From Acidobacteriota bacterium (GTDB taxonomy: Bacteria > Acidobacteriota > Thermoanaerobaculia > Multivoradales > JBCCEF01): a stretch of 48,661 nucleotides of DNA. The position numbers and the translations under genes were made by a program. Of this stretch, positions 37,551 through 46,251 are shown piece by piece; the stretch's first letter is position 1, and every line of letters begins with the position of its first letter. The DNA is taken from NCBI GenBank assembly GCA_039028635.1, contig JBCCHV010000052.1, positions 1 through 48,661 of the forward strand. The letters run 5' to 3'. Below the pieces are notes generated by a model, which saw nothing but the letters and a program-made list of their open reading frames with translations, was not told the DNA's origin and did not search any database.

Positions 37551-40321
37551 GCAAATCGAACGGTCGACCGGTCCTCAATCTCGACGGCAGGGAAGTTTCC
37601 TTCAATGCCGGCGAAACCATCCTGCAAGCGGCGCAGCGGGCGGAAGTCACCATTCCGACCCTGTGCCATGATCCCCGGCTGACGCCGGCGGCGGCCTGCC
37701 GTATCTGCCTGGTGGAAGTCGAAGGCGCCCGGCTGATGCAGCCGGCTTGCGCCACCCGCGCCCAGGACGGCATGGTGATCAAGACCGAGGGCGAGCGGGT
37801 GGACCGCAATCGCCGCTTCATTCTTTCGCTCCACCTGGCCGACACGGTGGCCGATCGTGAGCGCGCCGAGGACAACAATCCGTCGCGCGTCTTTGCCCAC
37901 GTCGACACCTACGGCTGTGCCGGCGCCTGGCCGTCGGTGGAGTCCCCGCGCCAGGGGCGGCCGGAAGACGTCAATCCGTTCATCGAGTTCCGTGCCGACC
38001 GCTGCATCGCCTGCTCGCTGTGCACTCGCTACTGCGACCAGGTGGAGGCGGTGAGCGCCATCAGCCTGGCCGGCCGCGGCGCTCACACCACCATTTCGAC
38101 GGCCGATCGCAAGGGCCTCGTCGATTCGACCTGCGAGCTCTGCGGTGGCTGTGTCGACGTCTGTCCCACCGGCGCCATGACGGAAAAGCAGGCGGTGCTC
38201 TACGGCAAGCCCGAGTCGGAGCTCGAGAAGGTCCGCTCGACCTGCAACTTCTGTGGCGTCGGCTGCCAGATCGACCTCAACGTCGATCGTGCCGCCAACC
38301 GCGTGGTCAAGGTCACCAGCCCGCCGCCGGGGACCACCGTCAACGACGGCAACCTGTGCGTCAAGGGGCGCTTCGCCAACGACTTCATCCATCACGAAGA
38401 GCGCTTGACGGTGCCGCTGGTGCGGGGGGAGGACGGCGAGCTTCACGAGGCCACCTGGGACGAAGCCCTTGACCGCGTCGCTGAGGGGCTCGCCGGCGTG
38501 TCCGATCGCCACGGCGCCGATGCCCTGGCTTTCATCAGCTCCAGCCGCTGCACCATGGAGGAGAACTACCTGGTTCAAAAGATGGCGCGGGCGGCATTCC
38601 AAACCCACAATGTCCATCAGTGTGCCGCCACTTGACACGCTCCCACGGTCGCCGGTCTGGTGACCACGTTCGGGGCGGGGGCGATGACCAACTCGATCCC
38701 GGAGATCCGCGACGCCGAGTTCCTCTTCGTCATCGGCTCCAACACCACCGAGGCCCATCCCATCATCGCCATGGAGATGAAGCGCGCGGTGCATCGCGGC
38801 GCCAAGCTGGCAGTGGCGGATCCGCGGGCCATTTGGCTCACCCAGGTGGCGGACTGGCATCTGCAGCTCGCCCCGGGGAGCGATGTTTGGTTGCTCAACG
38901 CCATGGCCCACGTCATCGTCACCGAGGGTCTGGTGAAGGAAGACTGGGTCGCCGCCAACACGGAAGGCTTCGAGGCGGTCCGGGACACGGTGCTGCGTTA
39001 CTCGCCGGAAGAGGCGGAGAAGATGACCGGCGTGCCCGCGGCGACCATCCGCGAGGTCGCCCGCGCCTACGCGACGACCGAAAAGGCCGGGATCTACTAC
39101 ACCCTCGGGATCACCGAGCACACCCACGGGACGGACAACGTCTACGCCCTCTCCAACCTGGTGCTGATGACCGGCCACCTCGGAATCCGGTCGGCGGGCC
39201 TCAACCCGCTGCGCGGCCAGAACAACGTTCAGGGAGCGAACGACGCCGGCGCGACGCCGGTCTTCTATCCCGGCTATCAGCGGGTCGACGAGCCTGGCGT
39301 GGCGGAGAAGTTCGCCGAGGCCTGGGGCGTGCCGCAGAGCTGCGATCCGGGGCTCAACCTCAACGAGATGATGAAGGAGATGTCCAAGGGCAAGATCAAG
39401 GGCGTCTTTCTGATGGGCGAGGACATCGTCATCTCGGAGCCCAACGTCGGACGGGTGGAGGAGGCACTCAACGGCATCGAGTTCCTGGCCGTGCAGGACA
39501 TCTTCTTCAATGAGAGCTGCCGCTGGGCCGACGTCATCTTGCCAGCCGCCTGTTTCGCCGAAAAGGAAGGCACCTTCACCAACTCGGACCGCCGGGTGCA
39601 GCGGGTGCGCAAGGCGATCGAACCGCCAGGCCAGGCCCGCGCCGACTGGCGCATCCTGCTCGACATCATGGAGCGCTCCGGCTTCGAGCAGCCGGCCTAT
39701 GCCGGTCCGCACGAGATCTACGATGAGCTGGCGGCGCTGGCACCAAAGTTCTCCGGCATCTCCCACCAGCGCATCGAGGCCGAAGGTGGCTTGCAGTGGC
39801 CGGTGACCTCGGCGACGGACCAGTCCACCGAGTTTCTCCACGGTGGCGGCGTCCTGCGGGGCAAAGGGCTGTTCCAGGCGGTCGATTACCGGCCGCCCTT
39901 CGAGGTCGCCGATCCCGAGTACCCACTGGTGTTGTCGACCGGGCGCACCCTCTATCACTACAACGCCGCCACCCAGACGCGGCGTAACCAAGGCTTGGCC
40001 ACCAAGCAGCCCGAGGCCTTCGTCGAGATCCATCGCTCGAATGCCCGCAAGCTGGGTCTCGAAGATGGCCAGATGGTCGACGTGGTCAGCCGCCGGGGCC
40101 GGGTGCGCTGCCGCGCCATGATCAGTCGTCAGGTGCGTCCCAATGCCATCTGGATGCCCTTCCATTTCCCGGAGGCCCGCACCAATTACCTGACCACCGA
40201 CGCTGGCGACGCGGTGACCGGTACCGGCGAGTACAAGGTTTGCGCCGCCCGCATCGAGCCGGTGGTGGAAAGCCGGGCCGAGAAGGTCTTCCCGGGCGCC
40301 TTCGCCCTCGCCGAAGGTTGA
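37547..40321 (+). CDS. fdsA: Selenocysteine-containing formate dehydrogenase catalytic subunit
   Basis: One 924-residue protein read through an in-frame TGA (38633-38635) as Sec363. Start GTG 37547 with GGAGG 6 bases upstream. N-terminal [2Fe-2S] ferredoxin domain: Cys40, 51, 54, 68. Two ferredoxin-type [4Fe-4S] motifs: Cys153/156/159/163 and Cys196/199/202/206. Molybdopterin domain: proximal [4Fe-4S] Cys233/236/240/271, active-site QCAAT-Sec-HAPTVAGLVTTF, GSNTTEAHPI, GRTLYHYN. Family enzymes have Cys or Sec exactly here, followed by His. Downstream frame and homology are unbroken. The NuoG-type His-Cys3 cluster motif is not visible. Oxidises formate to CO2, or the reverse, with molybdenum or tungsten; function requires selA/B/C/D elsewhere. 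Confidence 0.9.
38633..38665 (+). promoter_or_regulatory. Bacterial SECIS element
   Basis: The recoded UGA is followed by an 11-base spacer and a 7-bp stem, GGUCGCC / GGUGACC (38647-38653 with 38659-38665, one G-U pair), closing a GGUCU loop. E. coli fdhF has the same spacer length and a GGUCU-containing loop. This should recruit SelB carrying Sec-tRNA. Confidence 0.85.
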
Positions 40322-40335
40322 GGGTTGTCGGAGCC

Positions 40336-41388
40336 ATGCGACTAGCCGACGGCGCTGAGGATCAGAGGGAACGATTCTTCGGTTCCCAGAAGACGCTTGA
40401 GGCAGGTGATTCTCGATCCCTTCGTGATCGGCTCGCGGCCGTGAATATTGCGGTTCCTGGTCGAACCAAAGGGCGAAAGACCGACGACGGCGAGCGGTAC
40501 TGCATCGTGCAGTACCTTCGTACCCTTGACCAGGTTGGTTGTTTGGATTTCCCCATCCGGGTAGAGAAGCGCGAGCGGCCTGACTTTGAGGTGCTATCGG
40601 GGGAAAAGGTGGTCGGCCTCGAGTGCACTGAGGCAGGAAGCACGTCGGCGCATCGTGCTGACGCCGAGCTCGAGAAGGCTCCCAGGGGATCGGTTCTCGA
40701 AGGCACCAAGCTTAGGAAGCCGGGCGAGAGTTTGAAGGACTCTCCGATGTTCGGAGACGAGCCAGAGCGCCTTTGGGTCGAGGACATCCTTGACACATTG
40801 CGGAGCAAGCAGGGGAAGCTCTCCGGTTATCAGGAGTTTCCCGAGCAGCACCTCCTTATCTATGACAATTCTCAGTATCGTACGTTGACGGCTTGGACGG
40901 TGACCGATCTCCCCAGGCGGCTAGCAGATGGGATCAACGAATTGCCTGGCTATGGTTCGGAGCCTGGGCAACGCTTTCAACGGGTTTCGGTTCTGCGCGA
41001 TCGAGTGCTGATGTACGACATCACCGGTTCTCCTCTCTTGCTGCCGGTTCCCGTGGGCTCCGCCTTGCCGCCCCTGATGCCCCTCGACCGGCTCGGAGTT
41101 TCGGAGCTTGCGTTGCGAGAATTCTGCCGCAAGTATCGGATCCGGAAGTTGGGATTCTTTGGCTCCGTGAGGGAAGACGATCGATTCGGACCCCAGAGCG
41201 ACGTGGATGTCTTGGTGGAGTTCGAACCGGAATTCGGGCTCGGACTCCTTCAGTTGGCGCTGATCGAATTTGAGCTAACCAATCTGCTGGAGCGCAAAGC
41301 CGACCTCAGAACGGTCCTCGACCTCAGCCGATACTTTCGGGAAGAGGTAGTGCGCGACAAGACCGAGCTCGCCTATGTCGCCGGCTGA
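40336..41388 (+). CDS. MNT-type nucleotidyltransferase with nuclease-like N-terminal domain
   Basis: A 350-aa protein. The C-terminal about 100 residues are a minimal nucleotidyltransferase (MntA-like antitoxin): GSVREDDRFG with Gly276-Ser277, SDVDVLVEF with Asp289 and Asp291, third acidic Asp323 in KADLRT. Residues 1-245 are an additional domain. RPDFEVLSGEKVVGLECTEA (Asp83, Glu96) and HLLIYDNS recall PD-(D/E)xK-like nuclease cores, but the third residue is not Lys, so that is inference. MntA antitoxins are usually near 100-150 aa. ATG 40336, 15 bases after fdsA, with CGGAG upstream. Overlaps hepT by 14 bases. Base composition looks less GC-rich than neighbours, suggesting transfer. Confidence 0.75.
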   Translation: MRLADGAEDQRERFFGSQKTLEAGDSRSLRDRLAAVNIAVPGRTKGRKTDDGERYCIVQYLRTLDQVGCLDFPIRVEKRERPDFEVLSGEKVVGLECTEAGSTSAHRADAELEKAPRGSVLEGTKLRKPGESLKDSPMFGDEPERLWVEDILDTLRSKQGKLSGYQEFPEQHLLIYDNSQYRTLTAWTVTDLPRRLADGINELPGYGSEPGQRFQRVSVLRDRVLMYDITGSPLLLPVPVGSALPPLMPLDRLGVSELALREFCRKYRIRKLGFFGSVREDDRFGPQSDVDVLVEFEPEFGLGLLQLALIEFELTNLLERKADLRTVLDLSRYFREEVVRDKTELAYVAG

Positions 41389-41722
41389 CGTCGTTCGAGT
41401 TCGTCACATGCTCGAGGCGGTTCGCAAGAGCCGGGAGTTCGCTCAAGGCCGCCGACGGGAAGATTTGGACAACGATGAGCAACTCTCGTTGGCACTACAG
41501 CGGCTTCTCGAGGTACTAGGTGAAGCAGCCTCCAAAGTCACTTTGGAGGGGCGGCAACTGGCTCCGGAAATTCCTTGGAGAGCGATATCGGGCATGAGGA
41601 ACCGTCTGATCCACGCTTACTTCGACGTCGATCTCGACATCGTCTGGAGGACGATTTCGGATGAGCTGCCTCCTCTCGAAGGTGTGCTCGAAGCGCTCCT
41701 CACGTCTGTCGATAAGGAGTGA
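41375..41722 (+). CDS. hepT: HepT-like toxin (DUF86)
   Basis: A 115-aa HEPN-fold protein of the HepT/DUF86 family. The RNase motif R-x4-H-x-Y is intact: Arg75, His80, Tyr82 in RNRLIHAYFDVD. In characterised MntA-HepT pairs the MNT protein adds AMP to the Tyr and silences the toxin. The gene overlaps the MNT gene by 14 bases, so the two are coupled, antitoxin first. Confidence 0.88.
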   Translation: MSPADVVRVRHMLEAVRKSREFAQGRRREDLDNDEQLSLALQRLLEVLGEAASKVTLEGRQLAPEIPWRAISGMRNRLIHAYFDVDLDIVWRTISDELPPLEGVLEALLTSVDKE

Positions 41723-41821: not shown

Positions 41822-42099
41822 ATGAACCAACAGGAACGGCAGGGAGTCCAGGCACCGGCGCGACGCCTGCCGCTCTTCTACCTCGCCGTGGCCCATCTCT
41901 CGCTGGCGCTTGTGGCTCTGGAGCTGGCCCTCGATCCCTTCGCCTTCGCGGGTTTTTTATGTGCATCCTAGGATGTTGGCGGTCACCCATTTGGTGACCC
42001 TTGGTTGGATCACCGGAAGCATTCTCGGAATGACCTAATTGCTGGCGCCCATGGCCTTGCGGATCCGTCTTCCTGCGGGCAAGGGCGATGGTTGGCGGC
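41822..42099 (+). pseudogene. Decayed multi-pass membrane protein fragment
   Basis: ATG 41822 opens LPLFYLAVAHLSLALVALEL, an N-terminal membrane helix, then breaks in a six-T run at 41953-41958. One fewer T restores the frame to YVHPRMLAVTHLVTLGWITG and SILGMT. A TAA at 42036-42038 stands where a Tyr codon is expected, after which LLAPMALRIRLPAGKGDGW continues in frame. The HPR-x(3)-VTHLVTLGW and LRIRLPAG patterns are typical of heme-copper-oxidase-like or NnrS-like membrane proteins. Two lesions plus loss of the rest mark it as a pseudogene. Confidence 0.65.
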
Positions 42100-42131: not shown

Positions 42132-43961
42132 TTACAGCGGCTGCAACCAAGGTCGATCGAGCTCGAGGGTCGAGCGGACTTCCCTCTGCAAGGCGATGAA
42201 CTCGGGTTGGTCGCGCAACGGGTCGAAAAGCTGAAACTGCAGCGCCGCCGGCAGCAGGGGAGTTCTTTGCTCCCAGCCCTGGCGTAAGTAGGCGAGGGCG
42301 CGCTGGTGCTCGCCGGCGCCGGCGGCGGTCAGGGCGCCGAGCTCGGGGAAGAGCGGCGTGGTGGCGTGAATCGCCTCGAAACGGTGGTGGAGAAGCTGCC
42401 AGAGGAGCCTCGCCTGTCCGCGGTCGCGAATCGCCTCGACGATGGTCGCGATGGTGTCTTGCGGAATGCCGCGCGGTTCCAGGAACAGGCGGGTTTCCTC
42501 GGCGAGCTCGCTCCAGCGACCCTGATTCTGGAAGATGACGATGCGCACCAGTCGGCCGGCGTCGTAGGGGTAGGCGAGGGTGAGCCCCTTTTCGGCGTGC
42601 TCGAGGGCGCACTCGAAGTCACCGGAGGCGTAGAGAAACCAGTCGATCTCGGAGGCCAGCCCCGGGTGGAAGGGGGTCAGCTCGGAGAGCTGGAGGGCGG
42701 CTTCTCGGGTGCCCTCGCGGTTGCCTCGCGCCAGCTCCAGGGCGGCGACTAGAGCCCAATAGCGGGGCTCGTGTTCGGCCCTTCCGGCGAGCTGGGCGAG
42801 ATGCTCATAGGCTTCCTCGGGGTTGTGTTCGCGATAGAGGGCCAGGCTGGCGAGGGCGACCCGAGCGGGGACTTGCTGCGGGGCGAGCTGGAGAGAGCGG
42901 CGGGCGGCGCGGGCGCTTTCCTCGGCGGCCTCAGGATTTGGAGCCGCGTGCCAGCGATCGAACTGGACCACCGCCAGAAGGCCGAGGGCCTGAGGGTCGT
43001 CGGGGTTGTCGGCGAGGGCACGCCGCACCAGGGCGAGGGCGATGTCGTGATTCGCCGGGCCGCCGCGGCTGAGCTGAAAGCCGACCTGGATCTCGAGACT
43101 GGCGGTCTCGTCCGGCGCCGGGATGTCGAGGGACGGAGAGATCAGCGGCCGGACCAGGGCGTCATTGAGCACGTAGGCCAGGGAAGCCAGTCGGTTGGGG
43201 ACGAACTGGAAGCTCGCCGTCTCCAGGATCCTGCCGCTCTCGACTTCGACGATCTCGGCGAGGGCTTCGACTCCGGTCACGGTCTCGGCGATGCGTCCCC
43301 GGATCAGGTGACTGGCCTGCATCTCTGAGTCGGGAGTCTCGGCCCGCAGAGCAGTGCTCACCGCAAGACGATTCGCCCATCGCTCCTTGAGATCCTGGGA
43401 GACGCTGAAGGCGATCAGCTCTCCCTGTTCGGAATCGCTCGATTCGAAGGGCAGCACCATGACGTTGGCGTCCGTCGGCACCTGGTTTTTCGCCATCACG
43501 AAGGCGACGGCGCTCGTCAGCACGAACGCCGCGGCGGCGATCACCGGCCAGCGTCGCCTCGCCCTGCGGGCCGGAGCGGGCGTCGAAGAGGCTTCCACCG
43601 GGGCGAGAAAACGATAGCCCTGACCGCGCACTGTCTGGATGTATTGCGGCTGGTGGGCCGAGTCGCCGAGGACCTCCCGGAGATTGCGAATGATCGGCGG
43701 CAGACTCTGGTCGTACTCGACCAGGGTCGGGCCCCAGAGCTCGGTGATGAAGTCCTCCCGACTCACCACTTCACCAGCTCGCGCAACCAGCAAGCACAGG
43801 GCACGAACGCGGAGTTGCTGGAGGGGCACCGGCTGGCCCTCGCGAGAGAGGGAGAGCCGGTGGAAGTCGAGCTCGAAGGGCCCGAAGGTGACGCGACCGC
43901 TGCCGAAACCCTCGCCGGGAAGGGAGCTCGGGCCGAGACTGGATTCCGTGGTGTGATTCAT
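42132..43961 (-). CDS. Winged-helix, single-TM, TPR regulator, paralog 1
   Basis: A 609-aa CadC/ToxR-like protein. OmpR-type winged helix at about 22-120 (FGPFELDFHRLSLSREGQPV, EYDQSLPPIIRNLREVLGD, YIQTVRGQGYRFLAPVE). Basic linker, then one membrane helix about 133-155 (VIAAAAFVLTSAVAFVMA). A TolB-N-like alpha/beta domain follows (VMVLPFESSD to about 290), then TPR-like helices to the C terminus (AYLRQGWEQRT, LFDPLRDQPEFIALQREV). Such proteins sense through the outer domain and bind DNA from the membrane. Nearly identical DNA-binding recognition region to paralog 2. Confidence 0.85.
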   Translation of the reverse strand: MNHTTESSLGPSSLPGEGFGSGRVTFGPFELDFHRLSLSREGQPVPLQQLRVRALCLLVARAGEVVSREDFITELWGPTLVEYDQSLPPIIRNLREVLGDSAHQPQYIQTVRGQGYRFLAPVEASSTPAPARRARRRWPVIAAAAFVLTSAVAFVMAKNQVPTDANVMVLPFESSDSEQGELIAFSVSQDLKERWANRLAVSTALRAETPDSEMQASHLIRGRIAETVTGVEALAEIVEVESGRILETASFQFVPNRLASLAYVLNDALVRPLISPSLDIPAPDETASLEIQVGFQLSRGGPANHDIALALVRRALADNPDDPQALGLLAVVQFDRWHAAPNPEAAEESARAARRSLQLAPQQVPARVALASLALYREHNPEEAYEHLAQLAGRAEHEPRYWALVAALELARGNREGTREAALQLSELTPFHPGLASEIDWFLYASGDFECALEHAEKGLTLAYPYDAGRLVRIVIFQNQGRWSELAEETRLFLEPRGIPQDTIATIVEAIRDRGQARLLWQLLHHRFEAIHATTPLFPELGALTAAGAGEHQRALAYLRQGWEQRTPLLPAALQFQLFDPLRDQPEFIALQREVRSTLELDRPWLQPL

Positions 43962-44153
43962 CGAAGTTCTCCAGGGTAGCGAGAGACCGAAGCGGGATCT
44001 TCCCGAGTTTCCGTACTTGGCCGTTTCGAACCGATCATGTGATTCTGCCATGGAAGGAGAGGATTCGCCTCTTCGGTCCGAGCCTTTGCGAAGGTGCGGT
44101 CGAGAGAACCCTTCCCTCGCGGTTCGAGCTCGGCGGCAGCGGCGCTTCCGGGC

Positions 44154-46001
44154 TCAGCTTCGAGGTCTCGACGGAAGCGGGCGATCGAGAGCGAGGGCCT
44201 CCGTGACCTCTGCTTGAAGGGCGACGAAGTCGGGGTGGTCCCGCATCTGGTCGAACAGTGGGTACTGCAGCGCGGCCGGCATCCAGCAGGTGCGCCGCTC
44301 CCAGGCCTGGCGCAGATAGTCGATGGTCTGTTGCTGCTCGCCGGCGCCGGCGGCCGCGATGGCGAGCAGCTCCGGATAGAGCGGTGCCTGGGCGTGGACC
44401 GCTTCGAACCGTCGTCGGATAAGGCGCCAGAACAGGTCCGGCCGGCCCTCGGTTCGGATGGCCTTGACGATCGCGTCTTGGGTCGCGGCAGGGATTCCCC
44501 GCGGCTTCAAGAACAGGTTGGCTTCCTCGGCGAGATCGTCCCAGCGCTCCTGGGACTGGAAGACCAAGGCTCGCACCAGCCGTGAGCCGTCGTATGGATG
44601 GGCCAAGGCCAGGCTCTGCTCGGACTGCTCGAGGGCGCCCGCGGGATCGGTGGAGGCATACAGGATCCAGTCGATATCGGCCGCCAGGCCAGGGTGAAAC
44701 GGCACCAGGTCGGCGAGCTCGAGGCCTGCCTGACGGGCCGCTGGGAGGTTCCGCCGGGCGAGCTCGAGGGCGCCGATCAGGGCCCAGTACCGGGGGCTGT
44801 CGTCGGCCTTTCCGGCGAGCGTCGCGAGGTGCGCCAGGGTCTCCTCGGGATTGCGTTCGCGATAGTAGGTGAGGCTGGCGAGGGCGACTCGGCTGGCGAT
44901 CTGATCCGGGTCTCTGCGCAGGGCTCGACGTGCCGCTCGAGCACTTTCGTCACCGGCCTCGTCATTCAGGCTCGCCAGCCAGCGATCGAACTGCACGACA
45001 GCCAGTAGGCCGAGAGTCTGAGCATTTTCCGGGTCGGTCTCCAGGGCTTGGCGGACAAGGTCGAGAGCGGTCGCGTGGTTCACCGGACTTCCCCGGCTGA
45101 GCTCGAAGTCCACCTGCAGTGCGAGATTGGCGCCGTCATCAAGACCGAGACGAGAGTGAGCCGGTGGAACCAGCGGTCGCACCAGATCGTCGTTGAGGAA
45201 AAACGCCACCGGTGCCATCTGGTTGGTCACGAACTGGTTGCTGCTGGTTGCGATGATGGTGCCGGTCTCGATTTCGAGGAGCTCGGCCTCGATGATCTGG
45301 CCGACGACGGAGGGAGTGATCCGACCTCGAATCGCATAGGTGGCTTGCGAAGTCGTCGGGATGCCCTTGTCGTCCTCGGTGAGCAGGACGGTGCTCACCA
45401 CCAGGGAATCCCGCCAGCGCTGCTTGAGGTCGTGAGAAAGGCTGAAGGCGACGAGCTCGCCATGCTCCGGATCGGCGGCAGTGAACGGCATGACCAAGAT
45501 GCTGGTGCTCGCCGGCCTGCTCGCCTTGGTCAGCACGAAGGCGAAGGTGCTGGCCAGCAGCAAGCTGGCCACGAGCAGCATCGGCCGGAAGCGGCTTGGC
45601 CGGGATTCGGGTATCTCGGTGGGGAGCTCTTCGACCGCGGCGAGAAAGCGATAGCCCTGACCTCGGACGGTCTGGATATATCTCGGTTGCTGGGCCGAAT
45701 CTCCAAGGACCTCGCGCAGGTTGCGGATGATCGGCGGCAGGCTCTGGTCGTACTCGACCAGCGTGGTTCCCCAGAGCTCCTCGATGAAATCCTCCCGGCT
45801 CACCACTTCGCCGGCGCGAGCCACCAGCAGACAGAGGGCGCGGACGCGCAGCTGCTGCAGCGGCACGGGCTGGCCGTCACGAAACAGATTCAGGCGATGG
45901 AAGTCGAGCTCGAAAGGGCCAAAGGCGGCGCGGCTGCGGCCTGGCGCGGGGGGAACTTTTGAGGACGGCGAAGGGAGAGGAGTCTCGGCGCTGCGATTCA
46001 T
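44154..46001 (-). CDS. Winged-helix, single-TM, TPR regulator, paralog 2
   Basis: A 615-aa paralog of the protein at 42132-43961 with the same order: winged helix (FGPFELDFHRLNLFRDGQPV, EYDQSLPPIIRNLREVLGD), membrane helix (MLLVASLLLASTFAFVLT), TolB-N-like domain (ILVMPFTAADPEHGE), TPR helices and C-terminal LFDQMRDHPDFVALQAEV. The DNA-binding domains differ at few positions while the sensor parts diverge more, suggesting shared or related target sites with different inputs. Start ATG 46001. A TTGACA hexamer on the minus strand at 46115-46120 may be part of its promoter, but no good -10 follows. Confidence 0.85.
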   Translation of the reverse strand: MNRSAETPLPSPSSKVPPAPGRSRAAFGPFELDFHRLNLFRDGQPVPLQQLRVRALCLLVARAGEVVSREDFIEELWGTTLVEYDQSLPPIIRNLREVLGDSAQQPRYIQTVRGQGYRFLAAVEELPTEIPESRPSRFRPMLLVASLLLASTFAFVLTKASRPASTSILVMPFTAADPEHGELVAFSLSHDLKQRWRDSLVVSTVLLTEDDKGIPTTSQATYAIRGRITPSVVGQIIEAELLEIETGTIIATSSNQFVTNQMAPVAFFLNDDLVRPLVPPAHSRLGLDDGANLALQVDFELSRGSPVNHATALDLVRQALETDPENAQTLGLLAVVQFDRWLASLNDEAGDESARAARRALRRDPDQIASRVALASLTYYRERNPEETLAHLATLAGKADDSPRYWALIGALELARRNLPAARQAGLELADLVPFHPGLAADIDWILYASTDPAGALEQSEQSLALAHPYDGSRLVRALVFQSQERWDDLAEEANLFLKPRGIPAATQDAIVKAIRTEGRPDLFWRLIRRRFEAVHAQAPLYPELLAIAAAGAGEQQQTIDYLRQAWERRTCWMPAALQYPLFDQMRDHPDFVALQAEVTEALALDRPLPSRPRS

Positions 46002-46251
46002 GAAGGGGCTCCCGAAGAGAGGACGGCATCGGCTCCGAGGAGATTTTCCCACGTTTGCCCGGGATTGCCCCCGCTGGCGCGGACTTGCGAATCTGGCGCT
46101 GTCTTGCGGAGCCTTGTCAATCAAACATTTACGCCTCGCGAGGTGCTGTACTCGGGCTCCGATCGGGGCCCGGGAATCTCACGCCTTCTCGCCGCATCAC
46201 CGATCGGAACCCTCTGGTTCGTCTTGACAGGTCCTCCCGTCTCGGCGGACC

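What the first reader, a model, noticed from the sequence alone, without database searches (positions are those of the whole stretch)
40336..41722. MNT-HepT module whose antitoxin carries a nuclease-like N-terminal domain
The MNT half and the HepT half keep all key residues (GS, DxD, third Asp; R-x4-H-x-Y), but the MNT protein has about 245 extra residues with a PDF...GLECTEA core and an LLIYDNS strand that recall PD-(D/E)xK folds. A fused effector would turn a two-part toxin-antitoxin into a three-function defence module. The DNA also looks less GC-rich than its surroundings and adjoins a pseudogene.
Basis: partly seen in the sequence, partly recalled or inferred. Interest (0 to 1): 0.75.

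Follow-up and report, generated by a model that had tools for sequence, protein, structure and literature searches.

The report
RNase toxin-antitoxin pair with nuclease-like domain
This bacterium carries a known kind of RNA-cutting toxin and its antidote enzyme, but the antidote has a large extra front part that looks like a DNA-cutting enzyme and that also occurs alone, sometimes beside defence genes, in other bacteria.

Summary
Window 40336-41722 encodes a 350-residue protein (new N-terminal domain plus MNT nucleotidyltransferase) overlapping a HepT RNase gene by 14 nt; MNT and HepT motifs are present. The fusion is real: a same-genus genome has it (N-domain 49% identical), with a HepT gene, the same overlap and another chromosomal site. 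The N-terminal domain matched nothing in Pfam, NCBIfam, PADLOC or PHROGs, but relatives exist: one fused to a different (AbiEii-like) nucleotidyltransferase, eleven standing alone (a twelfth seen as a fragment), some near type I R-M, AbiD or other defence or mobile genes, and six on viral contigs. A model from eight sequences (pLDDT 70, pTM 0.70) has the order of a PD-(D/E)xK core. Its best solved match is PA4535 (Z 9.6), then acetyl-CoA carboxylase domains, then many nucleases. E53, D83, E96 and K158 are almost invariant, but the classical catalytic lysine is Thr/Ser/Val in all 20 aligned rows, so activity is open. Verdict: a type VII (HepT/MntA-like) module with a new PD-(D/E)xK-like domain on the antitoxin, a new variant of a known kind. 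The three-function defence module remains inference.

The parts
40336..41388 (+). Fusion gene: N-terminal PD-(D/E)xK-like domain + MNT nucleotidyltransferase (350 aa)
   Evidence: ORF and translation; same fusion in G001 (L004 1495-2517)
40336..41070 (+). N-terminal domain, residues 1-245; modelled part is residues 23-246
   Evidence: No family match; relatives; model
40492..40494 (+). Codon of Glu53, candidate alpha-A carboxylate (E in 17 of 18 ungapped rows)
40579..40635 (+). PD(F)-x9-G-h-E-x-T core: Asp83 (20 of 20), Glu96 (20 of 20), Thr98 at the usual Lys position (T 16, S 2, V 2)
   Evidence: six of the 20 rows were selected with patterns that fix these residues
40807..40809 (+). Codon of Lys158 (19 of 19 ungapped rows), candidate relocated lysine
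   Evidence: in helix 121-137 of the model
41110..41370 (+). MNT (minimal nucleotidyltransferase) domain, about residues 259-345; G276 S277, D289, D291, D323
   Evidence: Pfam, NCBIfam MntA 24.3 bits (under cut-off 60), PADLOC PDC-S09 3.4e-17, motif
41375..41722 (+). HepT-like RNase toxin gene, R75-x4-H80-x-Y82; overlaps the fusion gene by 14 nt
   Evidence: Pfam HepT-like 5.6e-26; same 14-nt overlap in G001 (2504 against 2517)
41822..42090 (+). Remnant of a membrane-protein-like gene (pseudogene) next to the module; not part of it

Best explanation
A type VII-like (HepT/MntA) toxin-antitoxin operon whose antitoxin has gained an N-terminal PD-(D/E)xK-like domain. Inferred from the family: HepT is an RNase that stops growth, and the MNT domain silences it by adding AMP to Tyr82. 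Shown here: the extra domain is conserved, probably under purifying selection, with a PD-(D/E)xK-like predicted core and an almost invariant E53/D83/E96/K158 set; it occurs alone and is fused to two different nucleotidyltransferase types. Inferred: it binds, and probably cleaves, nucleic acid. It gives the antitoxin a second contact with DNA or RNA, so that engagement of foreign or damaged nucleic acid changes antitoxin action or adds a direct attack, coupling HepT release to that signal. Most likely role: an abortive-infection or stress module.
For: MNT and HepT family matches and motifs (mechanism in PMC7641770). Same three-part operon in a second species of the genus with the same overlap, at a non-orthologous site. 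dN/dS of the N-domain about 0.20, MNT about 0.17, HepT about 0.41; dS 1.7-2.5, so rough. Relatives: 6 of 148 genomes of the class, 4 of 396 of the phylum, both counts with the window's own genome; plasmids; 6 viral contigs. Model pLDDT 70.4, pTM 0.70, alpha-beta-beta-beta-alpha...alpha-beta order; best solved match PA4535 Z 9.6 (rmsd 3.6, 143 aligned), and 18 of the 50 rows shown are restriction, nicking, repair or junction nucleases or the Shedu nuclease domain by name. Defence genes near some stand-alone relatives.
Against: No Lys at the (D/E)xK position in any of 20 rows. Foldseek has no PDB match at E<=0.001 (best 0.03). Ranks 2-13 of the second look are acetyl-CoA carboxylase domains at Z 7.0-8.2, which are not nucleases. 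NCBI's MntA and HepT equivalog models match below their cut-offs. In the second species the third MNT Asp is Asn and HepT is only 35% identical. None of five scanned window neighbours matches PADLOC, nor does HepT. Viral relatives align only weakly to the profile by hhalign.
Confidence: 0.5

Rival explanations
1. The N-terminal domain is a PD-(D/E)xK fold that has lost catalysis and serves as a scaffold or sensor: it binds DNA or a protein partner and sets where or when the antitoxin works.
For: The (D/E)xK lysine is replaced by T/S/V in 20 of 20 rows; fusion to two different nucleotidyltransferase types suits an adaptor role.
Against: D83 and E96 are invariant in all 20 rows and in the 14 not chosen by pattern; E53 and K158 nearly so. 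Dead nucleases usually lose such residues (general knowledge).
Confidence: 0.3
2. Ordinary HepT/MntA toxin-antitoxin pair; the extra domain only adds a DNA-binding autoregulator or stabilises the complex, and the pair is a selfish mobile element without defence function.
For: Only one HepT-like match in the genome, which is 95% complete; lower GC; different sites in two species of the genus; next to a gene remnant; no PADLOC match among five neighbours. MNT-HEPN modules are known to be mobile (PMC2701414, passages read).
Against: The domain has the pattern of an enzyme-like core rather than a small DNA-binding motif, and occurs alone near R-M or Abi genes in some loci.
Confidence: 0.15
3. The N-terminal domain is not PD-(D/E)xK but another alpha/beta fold that resembles it, such as that of the central domains of eukaryotic acetyl-CoA carboxylase.
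For: Those domains take ranks 2-13 at Z 7.0-8.2 and ranks 2, 3, 9 and 10 of Foldseek's first ten; the Foldseek E-values are weak.
Against: Rank 1 is PA4535 at Z 9.6, recalled as a restriction-endonuclease-like fold; the spacing PD-x12-E with an upstream helix Glu fits PD-(D/E)xK; many nucleases follow at Z 3.6-5.5.
Confidence: 0.05

Closest known systems
HepT/MntA (HEPN-MNT) type VII toxin-antitoxin
   Same: MNT gene first, HepT second, overlapping; MNT GS...DxD and HepT Rx4HxY motifs
   Different: The published MNT proteins are under 150 aa (PMC7641770); this one has about 245 more residues; GSx11DxD instead of GSx10DxD
HEPN-M (DUF86) proteins fused to MNT or to a Holliday-resolvase-like REase, and HEPN-T (PaREP1/8) genes in operons with 'genes encoding proteins with MNT and REase (DUF1626)', reported in PMC3710099 (table passage)
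   Same: Coupling of HEPN/MNT with a restriction-endonuclease-like domain; the second wording may even mean MNT-REase fusions, which the passage does not settle
   Different: Here the REase-like domain sits on the MNT antitoxin and HepT (HEPN-M type) is a separate gene with an intact motif; the domain matches no Pfam family
PA4535 (PDB 1y0k; recalled as DUF1780)
   Same: Best structural match, Z 9.6, 143 residues aligned
   Different: 15% identity over the aligned residues; titled protein of unknown function; no sequence relation shown
Stand-alone relatives of the domain (Massilia WP_259213762.1, Shewanella WP_014620922.1, Pseudomonas WP_024765043.1; viral L038, which matches phrog_35865 at 2e-13)
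   Same: Same E...PD...E-x-T...K...L-h-h pattern
   Different: Not fused to a nucleotidyltransferase; the three named are annotated hypothetical and the PHROG is of unknown function
AbiEii-type nucleotidyltransferase
   Same: In L005/L027 the same N-terminal domain precedes an AbiEii-like half (Pfam AbiEii 23.8 bits, cut-off 22.5, no single stretch passing alone; 20.1 bits in the whole protein)
   Different: The window has MNT and HepT; in L005 I recognised no HepT by eye among the ORFs of 80 aa or more within 1.4 kb upstream and 0.9 kb downstream (not scanned for it)

Membership tests
Type VII HepT/MntA toxin-antitoxin | MNT domain with GSx10DxD motif and third Asp | tested here: inconclusive
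   Pfam NTP_transf_2 8.2e-10; motif has x11 and the third Asp; NCBIfam MntA 24.3 bits, below its cut-off 60
Type VII HepT/MntA toxin-antitoxin | HepT (PF01934) with Rx4HxY | tested here: met
   5.6e-26; RNRLIHAY at 75. The NCBIfam HepT equivalog model is below its cut-off: 37.9 of 60 bits
Type VII HepT/MntA toxin-antitoxin | MNT gene directly upstream of HepT | tested here: met
   14-nt overlap, conserved in G001; co-transcription itself not tested
Type VII HepT/MntA toxin-antitoxin | HepT toxicity neutralised by AMPylation of the Tyr | not testable with these tools
   needs expression and mass spectrometry
PD-(D/E)xK nuclease superfamily | alpha-beta-beta-beta-alpha-beta core | tested here: inconclusive
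   order present in the model, pLDDT 70, pTM 0.70; best Z 9.6 to PA4535, nucleases at Z 3.6-5.5, but acetyl-CoA carboxylase domains at 7.0-8.2
PD-(D/E)xK nuclease superfamily | PD and (D/E) carboxylates on strands 2 and 3 | tested here: met
   D83 and E96 in 20 of 20 rows; model residues 61 (one before strand 62-66) and 74 (in strand 69-78); distances not measured, no coordinates held
PD-(D/E)xK nuclease superfamily | Lys two residues after the E | tested here: not met
   T/S/V in 20 of 20 rows; relocated Lys is known in the superfamily (recalled), K158 is a candidate. Hence called PD-(D/E)xK-like, not filed as an active member
PD-(D/E)xK nuclease superfamily | metal-dependent cleavage | not testable with these tools
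   needs purified protein
DUF1780 / PA4535 | sequence match to the family | tested here: inconclusive
   no Pfam match at E<=1 other than the MNT domain; only a structural match

The most novel reading that the evidence does not exclude
An undescribed PD-(D/E)xK-like family with a relocated lysine is an active nuclease built into an AMPylating antitoxin. One operon would then hold a DNA-attacking arm, an AMP-transferring brake and an RNA-cutting toxin, a three-activity immune switch, and the domain would be a general partner of nucleotidyltransferase toxins and antitoxins.
Probability: 0.25. Interest if true: 0.75.

Novelty: new variant of a known kind. Interest (0 to 1): 0.55.

Why it matters
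What triggers adenylylation or de-adenylylation of HepT is named as an open question in PMC7641770 (discussion passage). An antitoxin with a built-in nucleic-acid-engaging domain would be a direct handle on that trigger. It also exposes an unnamed domain family, in several bacterial groups and viral contigs, that is fused to two kinds of nucleotidyltransferase and in some loci lies near defence genes.

Tried and rejected
Assembly error or chance fusion: rejected, because the same fusion is in G001 and the domain recurs. Homology of the N-terminal domain to a named family by sequence: Pfam, NCBIfam, PADLOC and PHROGs at E<=1 gave only the MNT half or nothing; PDB by profile gave one chance-level row (E 1.2) and by the single protein only an MNT structure (1wot, 0.0011). 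The first scan of genome contigs with the single protein, and viral-contig scans with single proteins or alignments, found no relatives. The second genome-contig scan found one locus, L027, with the contig length and protein of G021. The first structure job, two sequences, was poor and is not used for fold claims. Phage records gave one weak hit (0.3) and none with two other queries. A conserved partner of the stand-alone domain was sought among neighbours: one unnamed family recurs upstream in Shewanella and two Bradyrhizobium plasmids. It is widespread on its own (311 plasmid records), its PDB searches gave no credible hit, and a HEPN-like look is recalled only; left as a lead. Rows dropped: one search gave 18 stretches; 3 were already known, 3 new ones were kept (L045, L053, L054) and 12 dropped as unrelated on reading the frames; of 4, one (L037) was dropped. 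Cupriavidus L036 was left out of the 20-row alignment (only a fragment matched). Tests of the viral rows' link to the profile were weak: hhalign probability 87 over 34 columns for L038 and 75 over 143 for L040. The link rests on the shared motif order.

Full report
What is there. The ORF 40336-41388 (+) encodes 350 aa and the ORF 41375-41722 (+) encodes 115 aa; they overlap by 14 nt. The C-terminal third of the first is a minimal nucleotidyltransferase (Pfam NTP_transf_2, residues 260-338, 8.2e-10) with G276-S277-x11-D289-x-D291 and D323. The second is HepT-like (5.6e-26) with R75-x4-H80-x-Y82. These are the features that PMC7641770 (passages read) describes for HepT/MntA, except that its consensus is GSx10DxD. 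NCBI's strict MntA and HepT models match below their cut-offs (24.3 and 37.9 of 60 bits). PADLOC matches the MNT half to candidate PDC-S09 (3.4e-17) and gives nothing for HepT. It is the only HepT-like match in the genome assembly, 95% complete.

The extra domain is real. The same-genus genome G001 encodes the same fusion (340 aa) and a HepT gene (116 aa) with the same 14-nt overlap. Identity is 49% in the N-domain, 63% in MNT and 35% in HepT; dN/dS is about 0.20, 0.17 and 0.41, with dS of 1.7-2.5, so these are rough. In G001 the third MNT Asp is Asn and the GS...DxD spacing is x10. The two modules sit at different places. The window's upstream gene has an 84% ortholog on another contig of G001, with no module sequence in the 1,050 bases that remain beyond it on that contig, and G001's downstream neighbour has its 81% ortholog on another contig of the window's genome. 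Module GC is 0.58-0.59 against 0.66 for the upstream gene. The adjoining gene remnant is confirmed. Together these fit a mobile module.

The window's own neighbours. Of the ORFs around the module I scanned five: three upstream (Complex1_51K, molybdopterin oxidoreductase and related iron-sulphur domains; read as a formate dehydrogenase cluster) and two downstream winged-helix/TPR regulators. None has a PADLOC match at E<=0.001. The rest of the 48.7-kb window was not scanned for defence genes.

Distribution of the domain. With the single protein or a profile: 5 of 98 relatives, 6 of 72 genomes of the order, 6 of 148 of the class, 4 of 396 of the phylum and 3 of 396 in a second phylum search around G204. 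These sets overlap, and the window's own genome is counted. Plasmids: 4 of 72,556 records with the window's domain as query at E<=1, two of them weak (0.09 and 0.3), and 4 and 5 records with two relatives as queries, each count including records seen before. One relative, G021/L005 (also L027), is fused to a different nucleotidyltransferase, AbiEii-like (23.8 bits, cut-off 22.5, when that half is scanned alone, no single stretch passing; 20.1 bits in the whole protein); I recognised no HepT beside it by eye. Eleven others are stand-alone ORFs (G060, G045, G067, G204, G328, Massilia, Shewanella, Pseudomonas, Dyella and two Bradyrhizobium) and Cupriavidus was seen only as a fragment in an unannotated record.

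Neighbours of these twelve. G060: between a type I methyltransferase (6.6e-176) and a specificity subunit (6.5e-39). Shewanella: near AbiD (6.8e-57). Massilia: near PDC-S39 (4e-166) and integrases. G045: near a weak TIR-like match (7.4e-4) (annotations). Pseudomonas: near an integrase. G328: directly after a ParE-like gene (2.6e-7). Bradyrhizobium L009: two annotated caspase-domain genes upstream and a HipA-like gene further downstream. G067: near a PIN-like match under its cut-off (24 of 32 bits). G204: a DsrE-like gene, no defence match. Dyella, Bradyrhizobium L010 and Cupriavidus: no defence match seen. Only some neighbours of each locus were scanned (none for Cupriavidus), the choice was mine and no background rate was measured, so this is guilt by association only.

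Conserved residues. In a MAFFT alignment of 20 sequences, window included, P82, D83 and E96 are in 20 of 20, E53 in 17 of 18 ungapped rows and K158 in 19 of 19 ungapped rows. Position 98, where PD-(D/E)xK enzymes carry Lys, is T in 16, S in 2 and V in 2. Six viral rows were found with DNA patterns that demand PD, E and T, so they are not independent for those positions; in the other 14 rows D83 and E96 are 14 of 14, K158 14 of 14 and E53 11 of 12 ungapped. The viral rows relate to the profile only weakly by hhalign and more clearly by order of motifs.

Fold. A first AlphaFold2 job with two sequences gave pLDDT 40 and pTM 0.40. The order is helix 27-44, strands 52-56, 62-66, 69-78, helix 80-91, helix 121-137, strand 148-155, which is the order of a PD-(D/E)xK core, with E53 in the first helix, D83 just before the second strand, E96 on the third and K158 at the end of the later helix. 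Foldseek against the PDB has no match at E<=0.001; the top row is SfsA (0.03), and archaeal Holliday resolvases and acetyl-CoA carboxylase share the first ten. The second look by VIA-align ranks PA4535 first (Z 9.6, rmsd 3.6, 143 aligned), then 12 rows of acetyl-CoA carboxylase (Z 7.0-8.2), then mostly nucleases at Z 3.6-5.5: 18 of the 50 rows shown are restriction, nicking, repair or junction nucleases or the Shedu nuclease domain by name (BstEII counted from its enzyme name), and NucC, SduA, Hachiman, SfsA, XisH and LmuA rows are recalled as the same fold. The tool warns that Z under 8 may mean only a common arrangement. BFVD gave no match at E<=0.001.

How it probably works. From the family, HepT is an RNase and the MNT protein silences it by AMPylation of the Tyr in Rx4HxY (PMC7641770). 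That step is inferred here. The new domain most likely engages nucleic acid. Whether it cuts is open, because the usual lysine is absent, though the carboxylates and K158 are kept. I lean towards some catalytic role, and towards the domain tying the antitoxin to a nucleic-acid signal; both are inference.

Known or new. The HEPN survey PMC3710099 (table passages and section 14 read) reports HEPN-M proteins occasionally fused to MNT or to a resolvase-like REase, and HEPN-T genes in operons with genes encoding proteins with MNT and REase (DUF1626). Coupling of REase with HEPN/MNT is therefore not new in principle. My searches (listings, and passages of PMC2701414 and PMC10440598) did not show an MNT antitoxin of a HepT pair with such a domain; the library lacks most subscription papers and I read no supplement. 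I file it as a new variant of a known kind.

Noticed in passing
window 38633-38635: An in-frame TGA splits the molybdopterin oxidoreductase gene upstream; read as selenocysteine it gives ...CAATUHAPTVAGL..., which recalls the U-H-x-P-x-V site of formate dehydrogenases. The RNA just after it folds no better than shuffles (z -0.72).
   Followed up: partly
L034:5335-5937, L009:4733-5911, L010:3673-4716: A related unnamed gene lies upstream of the stand-alone domain in Shewanella and two Bradyrhizobium plasmids (E 6e-8 between L034 and L009); it has invariant R..E.LK...H and is found in 311 plasmid records. It may be HEPN-like (recalled look, not shown).
   Followed up: partly
L027:6268-7863: Upstream of the domain-AbiEii fusion lies an AAA ATPase with a weak PDDEXK_9 C-terminal match, under its cut-off.
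   Followed up: no
window 42132-44051 and 44154-46124, - strand: Two neighbouring winged-helix (Trans_reg_C) plus TPR regulators that look like relatives of each other.
   Followed up: no
window 41822-42090: Remnant of a membrane-protein-like gene with a frame change and a stop; 70% DNA match in G020.
   Followed up: partly
L026:2219-3290: The stand-alone domain gene in G328 directly follows a ParE-like toxin gene, overlapping it if the longest start is used.
   Followed up: no
L004:2431-2433: The third catalytic Asp of the MNT domain is Asn in the same-genus fusion, so that copy may be a weaker AMP transferase.
   Followed up: no
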